Part shown: positions 3,238-38,959 of the stretch, in pieces
Numbering within the stretch: the first letter of the stretch is position 1
How the letters are laid out: each line of letters begins with the position of its first letter
Source of the DNA: an uncultured Ralstonia sp.
GTDB taxonomy: Bacteria > Pseudomonadota > Gammaproteobacteria > Burkholderiales > Burkholderiaceae
Assembly (NCBI GenBank): GCA_913056305.1
Contig: CAJXMR010000023.1
Span: 1 to 40,735, forward strand
Reading direction: 5' to 3'
Length of the DNA: 40,735 nt
Made by a program: the position numbers and the translations under genes
The notes under the pieces: generated by a model
Told to the model about the DNA's origin: nothing
Database searches by the model: none
What the model saw: only the letters and a program-made list of their open reading frames with translations

Positions 3238-4548
3238 ATGAAGACCATGTCGATCGCGCGGGGCATGCGCCCGGCCATGTTGGCGCTGCTGCTGGCCGCG
3301 GGCGCGCTGGCCTCGGGGCAGGCGGCCGCCGTGCCGCCCGCCGAGATCTACAAGCGCGCCCAGCAGGAGAAGCCGGCGCTGATCGACACCATGAAGACGC
3401 TGGTCTCGATCGAATCCGGCAGCAAGGACATCGAGGGCCTGGACAAGATCGCCGGCGTGATTGCCGATCGCCTGCGCCTGCTCGGCGGCGACGTCAAGCT
3501 GGTCGACCCGAGCGAGCACGCCTACCGCATGGCCGACACGCCCGAGAAGATCGGCAAGATGGTGCTGGCGCGCTTCAAGGGCGACGGCAAGCGCAACATC
3601 ATGCTGATCGCGCACATGGACACGGTGTACCTGAAGGGCATGCTCGCGCAGCAGCCGTTCCGCATCGACGGTGAGCGCGCCTACGGTCTGGGCATCGCCG
3701 ACGACAAGAATGGCGTGGCGGTCATCCTGCACACCGTGGCGATCCTGCAGGCGGTGGGTTTTAAGCAATATGGCACGCTCACCGTGCTGATCAACGGCGA
3801 TGAGGAGATCAGCTCGCCGGGCGCGCGCGCCATGCAGGCCAAGCTGGGCGCCGAGCAGGACGCCGTGTTCTCCTGCGAAGGCACCCGCGTGAACGCCGAC
3901 AAGCTGTCGCTGGCCACCAGCGGCATCGGCGCCATCCTGCTGGATGTGAAGGGCAAGGCCTCGCACGCCGGCGGCGCCCCGGAGCAGGGCCGCAACGCGC
4001 TGTATGAACTGTCGCACCAGGTGCTGCAGATGCGCGACCTGTCCAACCCGCAGACCGGCCTGAAGGTCAACTGGACGGTCGCCCAGGCGGGTACCAACCG
4101 CAACGTGATCCCGGCCGTGGCCAGCGCCCAGGCCGACGTGCGCCTGCTGCGCGCGGCCGACGCCGACAAGCTGGAGCAGATGGTGGGCGAGCGCATCAAG
4201 AACAAGCTGATCCCGGATGCGCAGGTGACGGCCAAGTTCGAGCGCCGCCGCCCGCCGCTGGAAGCGACGCCCGCGTCGCGCGCGCTGGCCGAGCACGCCC
4301 AGAAGATCTATGGCGAACTCGGCAAGACGCTTGAGATCGACGACAAGGCCGAAGGCGGTGGGACGGACGCCGCATTTGCAGCGTCCAAGACCCAGGCGCC
4401 GGTCATCGAACGCTTCGGCCTGGCGAGCTTTGGCGCGCACTCGAACGATGCGGAATACGTCGACCTGAACTCCATCGTGCCGCGTCTGTACCTGCTCACG
4501 CGCATGGTGATGGATGTGTCACGCGACCGCGTGGGCGTGACCAAGTAA
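3238..4548 (+). CDS. Exported M20 family metallopeptidase (glutamate carboxypeptidase type)
   Basis: A 436-residue zinc exopeptidase of the M20/ArgE-CPG2 family. The start is ATG 3238, with GTGAGGA 7-8 nt upstream. A typical Sec signal peptide (about 1-31, ending AAA) directs it to the periplasm. The metal site is complete: His126 and Asp128 in AHMDTV, bridging Asp in GIADDKNG (155-156), the catalytic Glu pair in NGDEE (189-190) and the late His in GAHSNDAEY. The dimerisation or lid domain lies at about residues 220-330 (GKASHAGGAPEQG). Homologues such as Pseudomonas carboxypeptidase G2 remove C-terminal glutamate from folates and peptides. The actual substrate here is not shown by the sequence. 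The open frame extends much further upstream, but that part is antisense to the DUF1835 gene. Confidence 0.92.
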   Translation: MKTMSIARGMRPAMLALLLAAGALASGQAAAVPPAEIYKRAQQEKPALIDTMKTLVSIESGSKDIEGLDKIAGVIADRLRLLGGDVKLVDPSEHAYRMADTPEKIGKMVLARFKGDGKRNIMLIAHMDTVYLKGMLAQQPFRIDGERAYGLGIADDKNGVAVILHTVAILQAVGFKQYGTLTVLINGDEEISSPGARAMQAKLGAEQDAVFSCEGTRVNADKLSLATSGIGAILLDVKGKASHAGGAPEQGRNALYELSHQVLQMRDLSNPQTGLKVNWTVAQAGTNRNVIPAVASAQADVRLLRAADADKLEQMVGERIKNKLIPDAQVTAKFERRRPPLEATPASRALAEHAQKIYGELGKTLEIDDKAEGGGTDAAFAASKTQAPVIERFGLASFGAHSNDAEYVDLNSIVPRLYLLTRMVMDVSRDRVGVTK

Positions 4549-4591
4549 CACCTCGGCGTGCGGGTGGGGTGACAACATTCCACCCATCGCG

Positions 4592-4648
4592 GCGACACGG
4601 GACGGTAGCTTGATCGGTTTTCCACCGATCCGCTCCGTCCCGTGTCGC
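4592..4648. repeat. Long inverted repeat overlapping the porin start codon
   Basis: Perfect 14-nt arms (4592-4605 and 4635-4648, GCGACACGGGACGG and its complement) enclose a second perfect 6-bp stem (4612-4617/4625-4630) and a 3-bp AGC/GCT step. Together they make one long hairpin with a 7-nt loop. There is no T-run, so it is a poor intrinsic terminator for the peptidase gene. The right arm contains the GTG start at 4642. Confidence 0.85.
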
Positions 4649-5725
4649 GTTATCTCTTTCGTTACCCCGCCGTACGCGCGGGGGCGCTGTTCGCCCTGTT
4701 GTCGTCTCCCGCGCTGGCCGAGTCCGGCGTGTCGGTATCCGGTTTCATCGATGCCGGCGTGTACCACATGAGCGACCGGCCGACCGCGGTCGGCTCCATC
4801 CAGCCCAGCTCCATCACGCTCAAGGGGCGCGAGGATCTTGATGGCCTTGGCCTTGGCCTTGGCCAGGGCTGGGCTGGGCTGGGCTGGGCTGGGCTGGGCT
4901 GCCGTCTTCAATCTCACCAACCGGTTCAACCTGGGGGATGGCCGCCAGAGTCCGAACGGCGCGTCGCCCTTGTTCTACGGCGAATCGACCGTCGGCATCG
5001 CTGGCCCATTCGGGTCGCTGCGCGCCGGCCGCGGCATGACGCCCATGTGGGTGTTCGACGAGCGCTACGATCCGTGGGCCAACTACCAGATCGTCAGCTC
5101 GATTGCGTGGTATGTGTTCCACCCGTCCTATCGCACCGATCCTTACAACAACGGCGCCTTCGGTGACGTCTCACGCCTGAACAATGGCCTGTTCTATGAC
5201 TCGCCTACATGGCAGGGCTGGCATGCCCACGCCAGCGTGGGTGTGGACAAGCACACTGCGCCAGACGTGTTCGGCAACGTTGACCAGGTCCGCCCCGTTG
5301 CCGCCTCGCTCAATTACGACGCGGGCCCATGGTCCGGCATGCTTACCGCCGAGCGCAATTCCGCACGCGACAACACCTGGTTTGCCGGCGTCACCTATGA
5401 CGTTGGCGCCGTCAAGGTGATGGGCTCGTACAGTCAGACACGCTTGTCCGCCGCCAGCCAGACATTCCTGGGCGACGCCACTGCCCGCCGCACGGCGGCC
5501 ACGCTGGGCGCAGCATGGAACCTCAGCGGTGCGGTCACGCTCAAGGCCGGCATCGGCCGCGACTTCCAGGGCTATGGCGCCGACGGCCTGACCGACTACG
5601 CCAGCCTTGGCGCGGACTACGCGCTCTCCAAACGCAGCACGCTCTATGTCAGTGGTGGGGTGCAGAAAGGGGCGCGTGTGTCCGATATCCGCCGCATCGG
5701 CGCCGGTATGTCGCATACGTTCTGA
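4642..5725 (+). pseudogene. Outer-membrane porin, frame broken at a pentanucleotide repeat (probably phase-variable, OFF)
   Basis: A 16-stranded-type Gram-negative porin. The N-terminal part (GTG 4642) encodes a signal peptide ending ALA at residue 26, then VSVSGFIDAGVY and ITLKGREDL. The rest of the barrel (VFNLTNRFNLGDGRQ onward, to a C-terminal HTF) is read one frame away, ending at 5725. The switch between frames falls in 4842-4900, where GGCCTT units are followed by seven GGGCT units. In homologous porins this spot is a short GGL/AAVF junction, so the repeats are an insertion. Gaining one pentamer, or losing two, restores a single frame of 362 or 357 codons, a normal porin length. The start codon lies inside a large hairpin and has no clear ribosome-binding site. 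It could instead be a dead gene. Confidence 0.8.
4866..4900. repeat. Simple sequence repeat, 7 x GGGCT (preceded by GGCCTT x3)
   Basis: Seven uninterrupted copies of the pentamer GGGCT occupy 4866-4900. Just upstream, 4843-4860 holds three copies of the hexamer GGCCTT. The pentamer array lies exactly where the two porin frames separate, and 5 is not a multiple of 3, so slippage would change the frame. The hexamer array would not. Confidence 0.95.
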
Positions 5726-5783
5726 GACCGTCGGCGCGCCAGCCCTCTATATAAGACACCGTCGCGCGCTTGCGGCGGGCATG

Positions 5784-5817
5784 AAAAAGCCCCGCGCGGC
5801 GCGATGCCAGCGGGGCT
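5784..5817 (-). terminator. Intrinsic terminator of the small repeat-protein gene
   Basis: On the minus strand the stem AGCCCCGC/GCGGGGCT (5810-5817 and 5789-5796) is followed by five T residues (5784-5788). It lies 70 bp after the stop at 5888, and between convergent genes. Confidence 0.85.
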
Positions 5818-5887
5818 CGAGAGGGCCAAAGGCGGGAAATGGAGGATGCCTGGAGACCGGCCCGGAACCAGGGTGCCGATCAACCGA

Positions 5888-6172
5888 TCAGTTCGGCACC
5901 GGATAGCCGTAGACCGTGCCGCCGCCTTCGCGGGCGCGGCCGGCCGGGTCGCTGCGCATGCCTTCGGTGTACGGATCGAACCGGCTGCTGCGCGCGCCTT
6001 CGGTGTAGGTGTCGAAGCGTCCGGAGCGGGCGCCATCGCTGTAGACATCAAAACGCGAGTCCCGCGCGGCCTGGCCGAACACTTCGATACGGCTGGCCTG
6101 CGCCCATGCGCTGCCCGCCGCAAGGGCGCCTGCTGCCACCAGCGCGGCAATACCAATGTGCTTGAGTCGCAT
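5888..6172 (-). CDS. Small exported protein with 12-residue ARSxRFDxYTEG repeats
   Basis: A 94-residue protein. The start is ATG 6172, with a strong GAAGGAG 8 nt upstream. A Sec signal peptide (about 1-24, ending SAWA) precedes three tandem 12-residue units at 36-47, 48-59 and 60-71, with a fourth partial copy (MRSDP). Each unit reads A-R-[DS]-x-R-F-D-x-Y-[TS]-[DE]-G. The tail is Gly-rich and ends YGYPVPN. The Asp/Glu/Tyr pattern could bind a cation or stack as a short beta structure, but I cannot name the family. It is a single gene with its own terminator. Confidence 0.82.
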   Translation of the reverse strand: MRLKHIGIAALVAAGALAAGSAWAQASRIEVFGQAARDSRFDVYSDGARSGRFDTYTEGARSSRFDPYTEGMRSDPAGRAREGGGTVYGYPVPN

Positions 6173-6662
6173 GGCGAACTCCTTCTTCAACTGATTTTCG
6201 GTGCTGTTTTGGGTGCGTGGTCTTGTCATGTCCTGCCACGGCCTGAAGCGTAGGCGAGCTGCCCCACGGTATCCACGGCGGTGCGACGAACGGTTTGTTG
6301 TGGGCGCCGAAATGATGCAAGCCGGCGTGGGTGACCCATCCGGCAAGTTGGTGCTTAGGCAATCGCTACGCCTTTTTGCCTAATCAAGATCCTGTTTCAA
6401 ACAGCGCCGTCAATATTGATGCACCACAGCAGGGCACGACGAGCCGGCAAGCCTTGCCGGAGGCCGCTTTGGTGCGTCGCATCAAGAGCGATGCGTGCGT
6501 ACCACACTTGGGCGGTGGATTCTGTGAATTGCTTTGCCCGGGCTAAGGGCTTTTGTTAAATTTGCGCGGCACTTCCGACACGGAAGTAAGGAAATCTGGA
6601 GGAGCCCACCCTCATGCACACGGGGGCGGGTGTTGAGACAACTCTTTTTATTACGAGCCCAC
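6173..6662. other. 490-bp intergenic region upstream of the intact porin
   Basis: This region separates the divergent repeat-protein and porin genes. It holds a short dyad at about 6443-6459 (CCGGCAAGCCTTGCCGG), a hairpin CTTCCG-acac-GGAAG near 6569-6583, and then GGAGGAG at about 6599-6605, placed 9 nt before an ATG at 6614 that opens a frame overlapping the porin. I see no convincing longer gene in it. Confidence 0.5.
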
Positions 6663-7826
6663 ATGAAAAAGTCTGCCATTCTGGTTGCAGTCGGCGCCCT
6701 GTTCGCAGGTTCGGCCTACGCCCAATCGAGCGTGACGCTGTACGGTATTGTCGATACCACCATTCACTACACCACCAACGCCAATGCCAACGGCAACAGC
6801 CTGCTGCAGATGGACAACGGTGCGGTGTCCAACAGCCGTTGGGGCCTGAAGGGCTCGGAAGACCTGGGCGGCGGCAACAAGGCTCTGTTCGTGCTGGAAA
6901 GCGGTTTTGACCCGCAAACCGGTCGCGCTAACGGCGGTGGCCTGTTCAACCGTCAATCGTTCGTGGGCCTGTCCAACAAGGACTATGGCACGCTGACGGC
7001 TGGCCGCCAGTACAACTTCGGCTTCTCGATGGGCGGCAACTTCGACCCGCTGGGCGTGGGTAACTACCTCGAGAACTCGTGGGTGTACTACGGCATCACC
7101 GGCCTGCGCGTGTCGAACATGCTGAAGTACGAAGGCAAGTGGAACGGCCTGTACGTTGGCCTGGGCTACGGCTTCGGCCAAGCCGCCGGCAGCACGGCCG
7201 ACAACCGCTACCTGGGCGGTGCCGTGTCGTACGAATTCGGCCCGGCCATGATCGGCGCCTTCTACCAGCAACAGCAAGATTCCACCACTGCCGGCAACAA
7301 GCAGAAGGTGTGGGGTCTGGGCGGTAACTACACCGTCGGCCCGGTCAAGCTGTTCGCCGGCTATATCGACAGCAGCGACGGCACCGGCTGCACGAACGCG
7401 GGCTTCGGCTATGGCGGTTGCGCTGGCGACCGCGCTACCCTTGGTTTGAATACGAACGACGCGCAGGCGCCGTTCACCGCTGCAGCACTGGGCGCGGGCG
7501 CAGTGCCGGGCGCAACCAAGCGTCGTGACCACGTTGGCCTGGGCGGCGTGACGTACCAAGTCACCCCGGCGCTGGCACTGACGGGCGCGTTCTACTACGA
7601 CAGCATCAGCAACGCTGCGCTGATCGCAGGCGACACCGGCAAGCGCTACACCGGCGTGCTGCTGGCTGAGTACGCGCTGTCCAAGCGCACCCAAGTGTAT
7701 GGCACGGTTGCCTACGACAAGGCCAAGGATGCTGCTGTCCCCGAAATGGCGGGCGGCACGGCCAACGGCCAGAACGCCAAGACCAACCAAGTTGGCGCTG
7801 GCGTGGGTATCCGCCACATCTTCTAA
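6663..7826 (+). CDS. Outer-membrane porin, Burkholderiaceae (OmpC-like) type
   Basis: A 387-residue general-diffusion porin. It has a signal peptide MKKSAILVAVGALFAGSAYA followed by QSSVTLYGIVDTTIHY, the standard first strand of beta-proteobacterial trimeric porins. NSRWGLKGSEDLGGG (strands 2-3) and NRQSFVGLSNKDYGTLTAGRQ follow. The eyelet-forming loop 3 is around residues 115-140, and the protein ends with the expected aromatic residue (IRHIF). The start is ATG 6663, which gives the signal peptide directly. The ribosome-binding site in front of it is poor, and the best Shine-Dalgarno sequence lies about 60 nt upstream. A strong bidirectional terminator follows. Codon use is smoother than in the broken porin at 4642, suggesting this is the highly expressed one. 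Confidence 0.95.
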   Translation: MKKSAILVAVGALFAGSAYAQSSVTLYGIVDTTIHYTTNANANGNSLLQMDNGAVSNSRWGLKGSEDLGGGNKALFVLESGFDPQTGRANGGGLFNRQSFVGLSNKDYGTLTAGRQYNFGFSMGGNFDPLGVGNYLENSWVYYGITGLRVSNMLKYEGKWNGLYVGLGYGFGQAAGSTADNRYLGGAVSYEFGPAMIGAFYQQQQDSTTAGNKQKVWGLGGNYTVGPVKLFAGYIDSSDGTGCTNAGFGYGGCAGDRATLGLNTNDAQAPFTAAALGAGAVPGATKRRDHVGLGGVTYQVTPALALTGAFYYDSISNAALIAGDTGKRYTGVLLAEYALSKRTQVYGTVAYDKAKDAAVPEMAGGTANGQNAKTNQVGAGVGIRHIF

Positions 7827-11534: not shown

Positions 11535-11591
11535 GTGGCGCGCCCGGCTGGGATCGAACCAGCAACCCCTGCCTTCGGAGGGCAGTACTCT
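11535..11591. repeat. Left attachment site: 3' 56 nt of tRNA-Arg plus 1 nt
   Basis: A 57-bp perfect copy of 19721-19777. It contains the 3' part of tRNA-Arg(CCG) on the minus strand, from CCA (11536-11538) through the T arm and anticodon arm. It lacks the D arm and 5' acceptor strand, so it is not a tRNA gene. The integrase stop codon is 16 bp away. Confidence 0.95.
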
Positions 11592-19381: not shown

Positions 19382-19786
19382 ATGAAAACATCGATTGATT
19401 TCTTCAATGAATTTGTTGAAGCCAATAAGCCGGCTGGCCAGAAGCGCATCCAAGAGCTATGCGACGTTGACCAGACGACCGTAAGCCACTGGAAGAAGCG
19501 AGGCGGAATGACGCCGGCCGCAACGGTCAAGGTTGGAATGGCCCTCGGGTACCCGAGCGACCTATGCTACCGAATCGCCGCCATCGAAGCAGAGCGCAGT
19601 GAGACGGGTCGCAAGTTCCTTACGACGATGGCGCACGCCGCAGCATCCATCGCAACGATGGCAGTACTCGGTACCGTGGGATTGGTGGTCTCAGGCATCG
19701 GCAACAATGCTCAAGCCCAAGTGGCGCGCCCGGCTGGGATCGAACCAGCAACCCCTGCCTTCGGAGGGCAGTACTCTATCCATTGA
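19382..19786 (+). CDS. Phage HTH regulator with C-terminal membrane helix; frame crosses the attachment site
   Basis: 134 residues from ATG 19382 (AAGG upstream; ATG 19355 is the longer choice). The N-terminus has a helix-turn-helix (RIQELCDVDQTTVSHWKKRG, about 22-41). AIEAERSETGRK and a transmembrane helix (about 83-107) follow, an arrangement seen in DUF3693-like proteins of filamentous phages. It is divergent from the structural operon and beside operator-like repeats, so it is likely the lysogeny regulator. The last 21 residues (ARPAGIEPATPAFGGQYSIH) are antisense to the tRNA-Arg gene, and the stop codon is chromosomal. In the excised circle the same frame would run on for 39 different residues. 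Confidence 0.75.
   Translation: MKTSIDFFNEFVEANKPAGQKRIQELCDVDQTTVSHWKKRGGMTPAATVKVGMALGYPSDLCYRIAAIEAERSETGRKFLTTMAHAAASIATMAVLGTVGLVVSGIGNNAQAQVARPAGIEPATPAFGGQYSIH
19721..19777. repeat. Right attachment site within tRNA-Arg
   Basis: A 57-bp perfect copy of 11535-11591, covering the 3' 56 nt of the intact tRNA-Arg gene plus one flanking base. Sequence outside the repeats differs on both sides, which fixes the att core limits. Confidence 0.95.
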
Positions 19787-37658: not shown

Positions 37659-38959
37659 GTGCACACTTCCGCCACCAGACCGCCAGCTGCCCCCGCTGCG
37701 CCCGCCAATCCCGCTGCCGCCACCGCAGCGCCCGTCATCGAACCCGCCGACCCGTCGCGCTGGCTGGTGCGCGGCACACCGGGCTACCGCCGCGCCAACC
37801 TGGCGCTGTTCGCGGCTGGGTTCTCCACCTTCTCCCTGCTGTACTGCGTGCAGCCGCTGATGCCGCTGCTGGGGCATGACTTCGGCCTTACGCCTGCGCA
37901 GACCAGCCTGGTGTTGTCGATTTCCACCCTGCTGCTGGCCTTCGCCATCCTGTTTGCGGGGCTGCTGTCGGAGTCGGTCCACCGCAAGACGCTGATGGGG
38001 GTGTCGCTGGTGCTGTCGTCCGCGCTTACGCTGGCAGCGGCCGTACTGCCGGGCTGGGATGGCCTGCTGGCCTCGCGCGCGGTGCTTGGCGTGCTGCTCG
38101 GCGGCGTGCCCGCGGTGGCGATGGCCTACCTCGCCGAGGAAGTCCACCCGCAAGGCCTGGGCATGGCGATGGGCCTGTACGTGGGCGGCACCGCCTTCGG
38201 CGGCATGGCCGGGCGGGTGCTGACCGGCGCGGTGGCCGATCATGCCGGTTGGCGCGTCGCAATGGGTTTCACCGGCGCACTGGGTTTGCTGGTGGCGCTG
38301 GCCTTCCTGTGGCTGCTGCCGCCGTCGCGCCGTTTCGTGCCGCGCCGGGGCGTGGCGCTGGGCGATCTGTTCGACTCCCTGGGCGAACACCTGCGCGAGC
38401 CCGGCCTGCGCGCGCTGTTCGCCATGGCCTTCCTGCTGATGGGCGGCTTCGTCACGATCTACAACTACGCCAGCTTCCGGCTGCTGGGCGCGCCGTATGC
38501 GCTCAGCCACACGGCGGTCGGGGCGATCTTCATGGTGACCTGCTCGGCATCGGCGCCTCCACCTGGTTCGGGCGGCTGGCCGATCGCCACGGCCGCGGCC
38601 GCATGCTGCTGACCGGCACGGCGCTGATGTCGGCGGGCGTGCTGATGACGCTGGCCGCGCCGCTGGCGTGGGTGATCGGTGGCATCGCGCTGCTCACGTT
38701 CGGCTTCTTTGGCGCGCACGCGGTGGCCAGCGGCTGGGTCGGGCGCCGTGCCAAGCGCGCCAAGGGGCAGGCCGCCGCGCTGTACCTGCTGGCGTACTAC
38801 CTCGGCTCCAGCATCGCCGGCACGGCGGGCGGCAAGCTCTATGCACGGTGGGGCTGGCCGGGCGTGGTGGCGATGGTCGGGGCGATGCTGGCCTGCGCCG
38901 TGCTCAATGCCACGTGGCTGTGGCGGCGCGCGCCGCTGCCGCCCGGGGCGAAGCGCTGA
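37659..38959 (+). pseudogene. MFS transporter with a one-base frameshift (near 38537)
   Basis: A 12-helix major facilitator of the YnfM/arabinose-efflux-like type. GTG start 37659 and a Pro/Ala-rich N-tail, then FSTFSLLYCVQPLMPLLGHDFGL (helix 1), SRAVLGVLLGGVPAVAMAYLAEEV (helix 4) and GWRVAMGFTGALGLL (helix 6). Frame 1 is good to FMV at 38537. The reading then continues in another frame as LLGIGASTWFGRLADRHGRGRMLLTG to GAKR at 38959. Adding one T after 38537 would read FMVYLLGIGAS, the expected helix, so a single base is missing. The site is not a homopolymer. As sequenced, helices 9-12 are lost. Either a true lesion or a base-calling error. Confidence 0.85.

What the first reader, a model, noticed from the sequence alone, without database searches (positions are those of the whole stretch)
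4642..5725. Porin likely switched on and off by a GGGCT pentanucleotide repeat
The N-terminal and C-terminal parts of a porin are in different frames, and the change falls in seven tandem GGGCT units. Arithmetic is exact: 1084 nt between GTG 4642 and the stop at 5725 is not divisible by 3, while +1 unit (1089) or -2 units (1074) is. This gives 362 or 357 residues, normal for the family. The rest of the barrel and its C-terminal Phe are well preserved, which argues for a gene in use rather than old decay. Repeat-slippage control of surface proteins is established in Neisseria, Haemophilus and others. I know of no description for this porin.
Basis: partly seen in the sequence, partly recalled or inferred. 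Interest (0 to 1): 0.78.

Follow-up and report, generated by a model that had tools for sequence, protein, structure and literature searches.

The report
Porin gene broken by pentamer repeat
A spare outer-membrane pore gene is split into two reading frames by a run of seven GGGCT repeats; slippage of the repeat probably broke it and could flip it again, but the evidence leans towards an accident in a poorly equipped gene copy rather than an evolved on/off switch.

Summary
Seven perfect GGGCT units (4866-4901) separate the N-terminal part of a Porin_4 gene (profile 3-65) from the rest (profile 63-304), in another frame. The array is far longer than chance gives. It is the longest pentamer array in the 840 kb of this genome that I examined, a G-quadruplex motif with 2-nt loops, and sits beside a hexamer array.

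The broken frame is probably real and slippage-made: clear frame breaks are rare in this assembly, and the larger part is still constrained. Against a switch in use: none of 12 related porin loci examined has such an array; the first start codon lies in the stem of the neighbouring gene's terminator, without a Shine-Dalgarno match; the N-terminal part has lost conserved residues (weak statistics); the genome holds 23 other porin genes of this family. GGGCT arrays read in seven other genomes of the family lie in no convincing gene.

Best reading: an OFF allele of a redundant, patchily distributed porin, broken by an intrinsically slippery microsatellite. A selected phase switch remains possible (about 0.25). 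No second isolate or raw reads were available, so copy-number variation is untested.

The parts
4642..4866 (+). N-terminal piece of a Porin_4 gene: GTG start, signal-peptide-like stretch (by eye), first two strands; its frame runs on to a stop at 5164-5166
   Evidence: Pfam PF13609 profile 3-65, E 4.1e-9; own frame best of six by codon usage, though the model left it uncalled; best non-self match in 31 genomes is the own paralog C179, 43%
4842..4864 (+). TGGCCT hexamer array, 3.8 copies, frame-neutral
4866..4901 (+). GGGCT pentamer array, 7.2 copies, where the frame changes; also a G-quadruplex motif with 2-nt loops on the coding strand
4898..5725 (+). C-terminal piece of the porin (275 residues, ends in Phe) in another frame
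   Evidence: Pfam PF13609 profile 63-304, E 1.4e-28 for the frame from 4838; constraint kept
4592..4648 (+). Hairpin with perfect 14-bp outer arms (4592-4605 / 4635-4648) that contains the GTG start; shares the GGGACGG/CCGTCCC core of the terminator after the M20 gene in three relatives, without their T run
4549..5775 (.). Variable slot between conserved flanks: the porin here; short spacer (4 of 15) or about 4.1 kb of other DNA (10 of 15) in the other species of the genus; one of 15 split between contigs

Best explanation
This is an OFF allele of a redundant, patchily distributed porin gene of the Omp32/Porin_4 family. Shown: the frame changes at a pure GGGCT array, at the place where homologs encode a short Gly-rich segment between strands 2 and 3, and none of the 12 related loci examined has such an array. 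Inferred: slipped-strand mispairing expanded the array, perhaps helped by its G-quadruplex capacity, and so broke the frame recently. Further slippage would move the array through all three frames, so the state is reversible in principle. I think the array is an accident in a weakly or hardly expressed gene copy that sits against its neighbour's terminator, not an evolved phase-variation switch.
For: Array, and the frame change at it. Far above chance, second-longest repeat in 840 kb. Of 24 Porin_4 genes in this genome it is the only one matched in two frames. Frame changes without a nearby start codon are rare: 1 in 840,735 bp here (in the MFS gene of this window), against 1 in 400,000 bp of three relatives, so a break coinciding with the longest pentamer array is unlikely to be chance. 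C piece still constrained, so the break is recent. Poor start: no Shine-Dalgarno match, start in the terminator-like stem. N piece keeps 9 of 14 invariant residues, the C piece 75 of 86 (Fisher p 0.046). No such array in 12 related loci. GGGCT arrays read in seven other family genomes lie in no convincing gene. The array is one of few G4 motifs with loops of 1-3 nt (4 in 800 kb of other contigs, 2 in the window).
Against: The six orthologs in genus g3 also lack a start codon with a Shine-Dalgarno match before the signal-like stretch, so a poor-looking start may be normal for this subfamily; the comparison is also biased, because it takes the best of many starts for each other gene. The relaxed-constraint signal in the N piece is weak: 9 changes against 2 (p 0.065), and the N and C ratios do not differ significantly (p 0.18). 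The promoter scan is uninformative (0 found, 0.4 expected). A long-silent gene should carry more stops or indels in 825 bp, and it has none. Surface proteins are the usual targets of repeat switching.
Confidence: 0.55

Rival explanations
1. A true contingency locus: slippage of the GGGCT array switches the porin on and off, and this variation is selected, as in Neisseria and Haemophilus.
For: Pure pentamer array in the first quarter of a surface-protein gene; codon usage fits the two frames; C piece conserved; only split porin of 24. Porin switching by repeats is known: PorA with a promoter poly-G and a 7A tract in the reading frame (PMC3639595 passages). PMC4692102 (passages) cites work that finds simple repeats enriched near N termini, taken as a sign of phase variation.
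Against: No such array in 12 related loci; no other pentamer repeat of 18 bp or more in 840 kb of this genome; no Shine-Dalgarno match, start in a terminator-like stem; residues lost in the N piece.
Confidence: 0.25
2. Assembly or sequencing artefact: the copy number or a nearby base is wrong in this 411-contig draft and the real gene is in one frame.
For: Draft of 411 contigs, 88.46% complete. A second frame break lies in an MFS transporter of the same contig near 38536. The paralog on contig C179 appears to leave its frame within the last 45 or so bases of the contig. Two cruder counts are higher here than in the relative G010: upstream frame open 30 bp or more past the change 5.9 against 3.3 per Mb, and all same-strand frame changes 164 against 100 per Mb (most of these should be ordinary neighbouring genes).
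Against: By the strictest sign, no start codon of the downstream frame near the change, there is 1 in 840,735 bp here against 1 in 300,000 bp of G010 and 0 in 100,000 bp of two others. An array of 36 bp is spanned by ordinary short reads (general knowledge).
Confidence: 0.15
3. Programmed ribosomal frameshift at the array yields a full-length porin from this sequence.
For: Frame open on both sides; strong RNA structure and a possible RNA G-quadruplex.
Against: No slippery X-XXY-YYZ heptamer in the upstream frame between about 4640 and 5166; the homologous matches are each in one open frame.
Confidence: 0.03

Closest known systems
Omp32-type porins (PDB 1e54; Pfam PF13609 Porin_4)
   Same: A profile of eight relatives matches Omp32 over positions 1-307 of 317, E 4e-18; both window pieces match Porin_4
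   Different: The frame is broken, and two repeat arrays stand where the family has a short Gly-rich segment
Neisseria meningitidis PorA phase variation
   Same: Porin expression altered by simple-repeat tracts, one of them in the reading frame (PMC3639595 passages)
   Different: Tracts there are homopolymers and expression changes are demonstrated; here a pentamer, with no evidence of expression or variation
Neisseria Opa CTCTT pentamers (recalled, no call)
   Same: Pentanucleotide array in the 5' part of an outer-membrane protein gene that shifts the frame
   Different: Opa arrays are conserved and proven to vary (recalled); this array is absent from the 12 related loci examined
Indel-broken singleton genes as classed by GeneTack (PMC3711429, passages)
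   Same: A single-species frame break in a gene intact elsewhere, which that paper assigns to indel mutation or sequencing error
   Different: It has a tandem repeat at the break, one of the paper's marks for phase variation
G4-forming repeats of Xanthomonas and Nostoc (PMC4692102, passages)
   Same: G-rich quadruplex-capable short tandem repeats
   Different: Those are heptamers, studied mainly in intergenic regions and found at rather conserved places; this one is a pentamer inside a gene

Membership tests
Porin_4 / Omp32-type porin | Match to the family profile over its length | tested here: met
   Two pieces, profile 3-65 and 63-304 of 310, both over cut-off
Porin_4 / Omp32-type porin | Uninterrupted reading frame with signal peptide and barrel | tested here: not met
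   Frame changes at 4866-4901; signal-peptide-like N terminus seen by eye only
Porin_4 / Omp32-type porin | C-terminal aromatic residue | tested here: met
   C piece ends in Phe
Simple-repeat phase-variable (contingency) gene | Pure tandem array with a unit not a multiple of 3 within the 5' part of the gene | tested here: met
   GGGCT x 7.2 at 4866-4901
Simple-repeat phase-variable (contingency) gene | Array copy number varies between cells or isolates | not testable with these tools
   One genome per species, no reads; one copy of the array in the genome
Simple-repeat phase-variable (contingency) gene | Array present in homologous genes | tested here: not met
   None in 12 related loci: 9 with the turn located, 3 more scanned whole (one hexamer array in L162 lies outside its match). 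All are other species or a paralog, so same-species conservation is open
Simple-repeat phase-variable (contingency) gene | Gene otherwise equipped for expression | tested here: inconclusive
   No Shine-Dalgarno match, start in terminator-like stem; promoter scan uninformative; g3 orthologs also lack clean starts
Pseudogene | Disabling change plus relaxed constraint | tested here: inconclusive
   Frame broken; C piece not relaxed (30 vs 25), N piece perhaps relaxed (9 vs 2, p 0.065; N against C p 0.18)
Programmed frameshift gene | Slippery site and conserved frame transition | tested here: not met
   No heptamer; homologous matches each in one open frame

The most novel reading that the evidence does not exclude
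A nutrient-type porin in an environmental member of the Burkholderiaceae is a contingency gene: a quadruplex-forming GGGCT array between strands 2 and 3 flips the frame at high rate, and a second, frame-neutral hexamer array beside it tunes the length of that segment, giving cells a reversible choice of outer-membrane permeability.
Probability: 0.2. Interest if true: 0.6.

Novelty: new member of a known kind. Interest (0 to 1): 0.35.

Why it matters
If the array varies and the porin is made in some cells, repeat-based phase variation would extend to a porin in a group where the listings of my five paper searches (60 of 188 rows shown) named none. If not, it is a clear example of how a slippery G-rich microsatellite silences a spare gene and mimics a switch, and why an array in one genome is not proof of phase variation.

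Tried and rejected
Chimera of two porins: the N piece's best relative apart from itself is the same paralog as for the C piece (43%, E 8e-9), so rejected. General frameshift-prone assembly: not favoured as the main cause by the strictest count of the frame census, with two caveats: cruder counts are higher here than in relatives, and the census did not itself flag the porin, because its model left the N piece uncalled. A first comparison with relatives' open frames reached only window genes: none of the fetched relatives' frames found a qualifying place in the 20 sampled contigs; of the six 'frame' flags I judged, by eye, only the MFS gene real. Naming the organism: no call names it. The genus has 16 species held, this one included; replicon sizes suggest Ralstonia, with g3 probably Cupriavidus (recall and inference only); plasmid and structure searches did not settle it. 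No structure prediction was made.

Full report
What is there. GGGCT is repeated 7.2 times without a mismatch at 4866-4901, directly after 3.8 copies of TGGCCT at 4842-4864. The frame that starts at GTG 4642 enters the arrays and, left as it is, ends at 5166 (174 aa); the frame that ends at 5725 is another one. Pfam Porin_4 matches the first piece at profile positions 3-65 and the second at 63-304, so the two pieces make up one porin and the change of frame lies at the arrays. A codon-usage score is highest, of six frames, in these frames (N piece at the 42nd and the first C stretch at the 55th percentile of 1325 gene pieces). A stricter coding model called 4901-5710 coding but left 4546-4900 uncalled.

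Is it more than chance? The array is 36 bp. In 25 order-3 Markov copies of the window the longest repeat of period 4 or more was 18 bp. In 800 kb of other contigs of this genome only one longer exact repeat (periods 1-9) was found, an 8-mer array of 39 bp that runs over the stop codon of an open frame. No other run of four GGGCT units exists in the genome. The array is also a G-quadruplex motif with 2-nt loops. Motifs with loops of 1-7 nt are common (40 in 800 kb); those with loops of 1-3 nt are few (4 in 800 kb, and 2 in the window).

Family and location. The closest solved porin is Omp32 (1e54, E 4e-18 for a profile of eight relatives). The arrays stand at the G-x-E-D-L-G-G-G segment of that alignment, between the second and third strands (that this is a periplasmic turn is recalled). 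Relatives carry a short Gly-rich stretch here. I examined 12 related loci: in the 9 where the turn could be located, no repeat of three or more units lies within 90 bases before or 150 after its start; the other three, scanned whole, have none within the match, though one has a hexamer array about 1 kb upstream of it (L162).

Distribution. Strong relatives are few: 6 of 60 genomes of genus g3 (60-62% identity), Pigmentiphaga humi (52%, the only locus returned from the named genome collection), 3 genomes of one other family among 399 of the order (own genome apart; 37-44%), and one paralog in the same genome on contig C179 (67% over the matched part). The 15 other species of the genus have none at E 1e-20 (best 7.5e-12). 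At the window's locus they keep flanking genes but not the porin: 4 of 15 have a spacer of about 80-150 bp, 10 have about 4.1 kb of other DNA (in G009, the one looked at, a molybdopterin-dehydrogenase-type operon), and in one the site is split between contigs. The genome has 24 Porin_4 genes in all, 23 besides this one, one of them 1 kb downstream; this is the only one matched in two frames (the C179 copy is cut by its contig end).

Start and control signals. In three relatives with the short spacer the upstream M20 peptidase gene is followed by a GGGACGG/CCGTCCC hairpin (one arm varied by a base in G006) and a T run, an ordinary terminator. In the window the hairpin is there with perfect 14-bp outer arms (4592-4605, 4635-4648; z -6.8 for 4550-4700), but the T run is gone, and GTG 4642 lies in the 3' arm. 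It is the first in-frame start and the only ATG, GTG or TTG ahead of the signal-like stretch; TTG 4699 and GTG 4729 come later. Its Shine-Dalgarno energy is +0.3, weaker than the best site of 97.6% of 380 genes, a comparison that favours the other genes since each could use the best of several starts; the paralog has -11.1. The sigma-70 scan of 4400-6700 found 0 sites where shuffles give 0.4, so it says little. Against over-reading all this: the six g3 orthologs show no start codon with a Shine-Dalgarno match before the signal-like stretch either (two have an ATG within 20-40 codons, L060 and L064), so the subfamily may start in an unusual way.

Selection. Over 218 shared columns the C piece differs from its relatives with dN/dS near 0.3, and changes unique to it (30) are about as many as those unique to the paralog (25). 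It keeps 75 of 86 residues invariant in the other eight sequences; the paralog keeps 75 of 82 by the same rule. So there is no old decay. The N piece is different: 9 of 14 such residues kept against 9 of 9 in the paralog, and 9 unique changes against 2 (p 0.065). The share of invariant residues kept differs between N and C at p 0.046, the ratio of changes does not (p 0.18). This is a weak sign of relaxed constraint ahead of the break.

Is the break real? A coding-frame census on 840,735 bp of this genome found one same-strand frame change without a start codon of the downstream frame within 60 bp, in an MFS transporter of this same window near 38536 that lies in one frame in two relatives. It found one in 300,000 bp of G010, where the upstream frame stops 4 bp on and a gene overlap is likely, and none in 100,000 bp of G006 and G012. 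Cruder counts are higher here than in G010: 5 against 1 changes with the upstream frame open 30 bp or more (5.9 against 3.3 per Mb), and 138 against 30 changes in all (164 against 100 per Mb). Frame breaks are therefore probably rare and the assembly not generally faulty, but two breaks in one 40-kb contig are odd and raw reads are needed.

Arrays elsewhere. Five or more GGGCT units occur in 8 of 299 genomes of the family, this one included. I read one array in each of the seven others (8 to 34 units; G119 has a second place that I did not read). None lies in a porin. Coding-scored frames overlap two of the seven (L142, L146) and look like shadows of genes on the other strand, which is my judgement. 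GGGCT thus behaves as a generic microsatellite in this family, which favours accident over design here, though the sample is small.

Mechanism. Shared by the first two readings and inferred, not shown: slipped-strand mispairing, perhaps eased by quadruplex formation in the G-rich strand, changed the unit number and with it the frame. All three frames through the array are open and leave it towards different stops (5039, 5166, 5725). The present allele cannot make a full porin by ordinary translation. Whether the reverse step matters to the organism is the open question. The poor start, the lack of arrays in relatives, the many other porins and the N-terminal losses make me put an evolved switch at about 0.25 and an accident in a spare gene at 0.55.

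Comparison with print. Passages of PMC3639595 describe PorA switching by a promoter poly-G tract and PorA-negative variants from a 7A tract in the reading frame, so repeat-controlled porins are known. PMC3711429 (passages) holds that single-species frame breaks mostly come from indels or errors, and uses tandem repeats in clusters of broken genes as a mark of phase variation; this case has one mark of each. PMC4692102 (passages) finds quadruplex repeats in Xanthomonas at rather conserved places and unlikely to serve phase variation, and cites work in which simple repeats are enriched near N termini. PMC7723262 (passages) uses repeats with 5-10 nt units as variable typing markers in Ralstonia pseudosolanacearum, relevant only if the genus is Ralstonia. 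The listings of paper searches (20 of 43, 15 of 55, 3 of 3, 10 of 10 and 12 of 77 papers shown) name no description of this porin or array; beyond them I saw passages of the four papers named.

Noticed in passing
window 37659-38956 (+), break near 38536: An MFS transporter gene is split into two frames by a small indel outside any repeat; two relatives have it in one frame. Real mutation or assembly error not decided.
   Followed up: partly
L081 (G000 contig C179), first 45 or so bases: The 67%-identical porin paralog appears to leave its reading frame just before the contig end (by eye), so both members of this pair look broken in the draft; contig ends are error-prone.
   Followed up: no
L059-L064 (six g3 orthologs): None shows a start codon with a Shine-Dalgarno match before the signal-peptide-like stretch; the subfamily's true start may be unusual.
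   Followed up: no
window 11535-11591 and 19721-19777: A perfect 57-bp direct repeat, one copy at the end of tRNA-Arg (ccg), bounds about 8.2 kb, and the repeat matches nine Burkholderia phage records: it looks like the two attachment sites of an integrated element.
   Followed up: partly
G000:C16:33939-33977 (L117:13939-13977): An 8-mer ACTGCTTA array, 4.9 copies, that starts at the stop codon of a 198-aa open frame; the longest repeat in the sample.
   Followed up: partly
L146 (G083:C1, near 1599376): 34 copies of GGGCT beside a gene that looks like ClpB (by eye), the longest such array among those read.
   Followed up: no
window 4549-5775: The same slot between conserved flanks holds a porin, a short spacer or about 4.1 kb of other DNA in different species of the genus: a variable insertion site.
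   Followed up: partly
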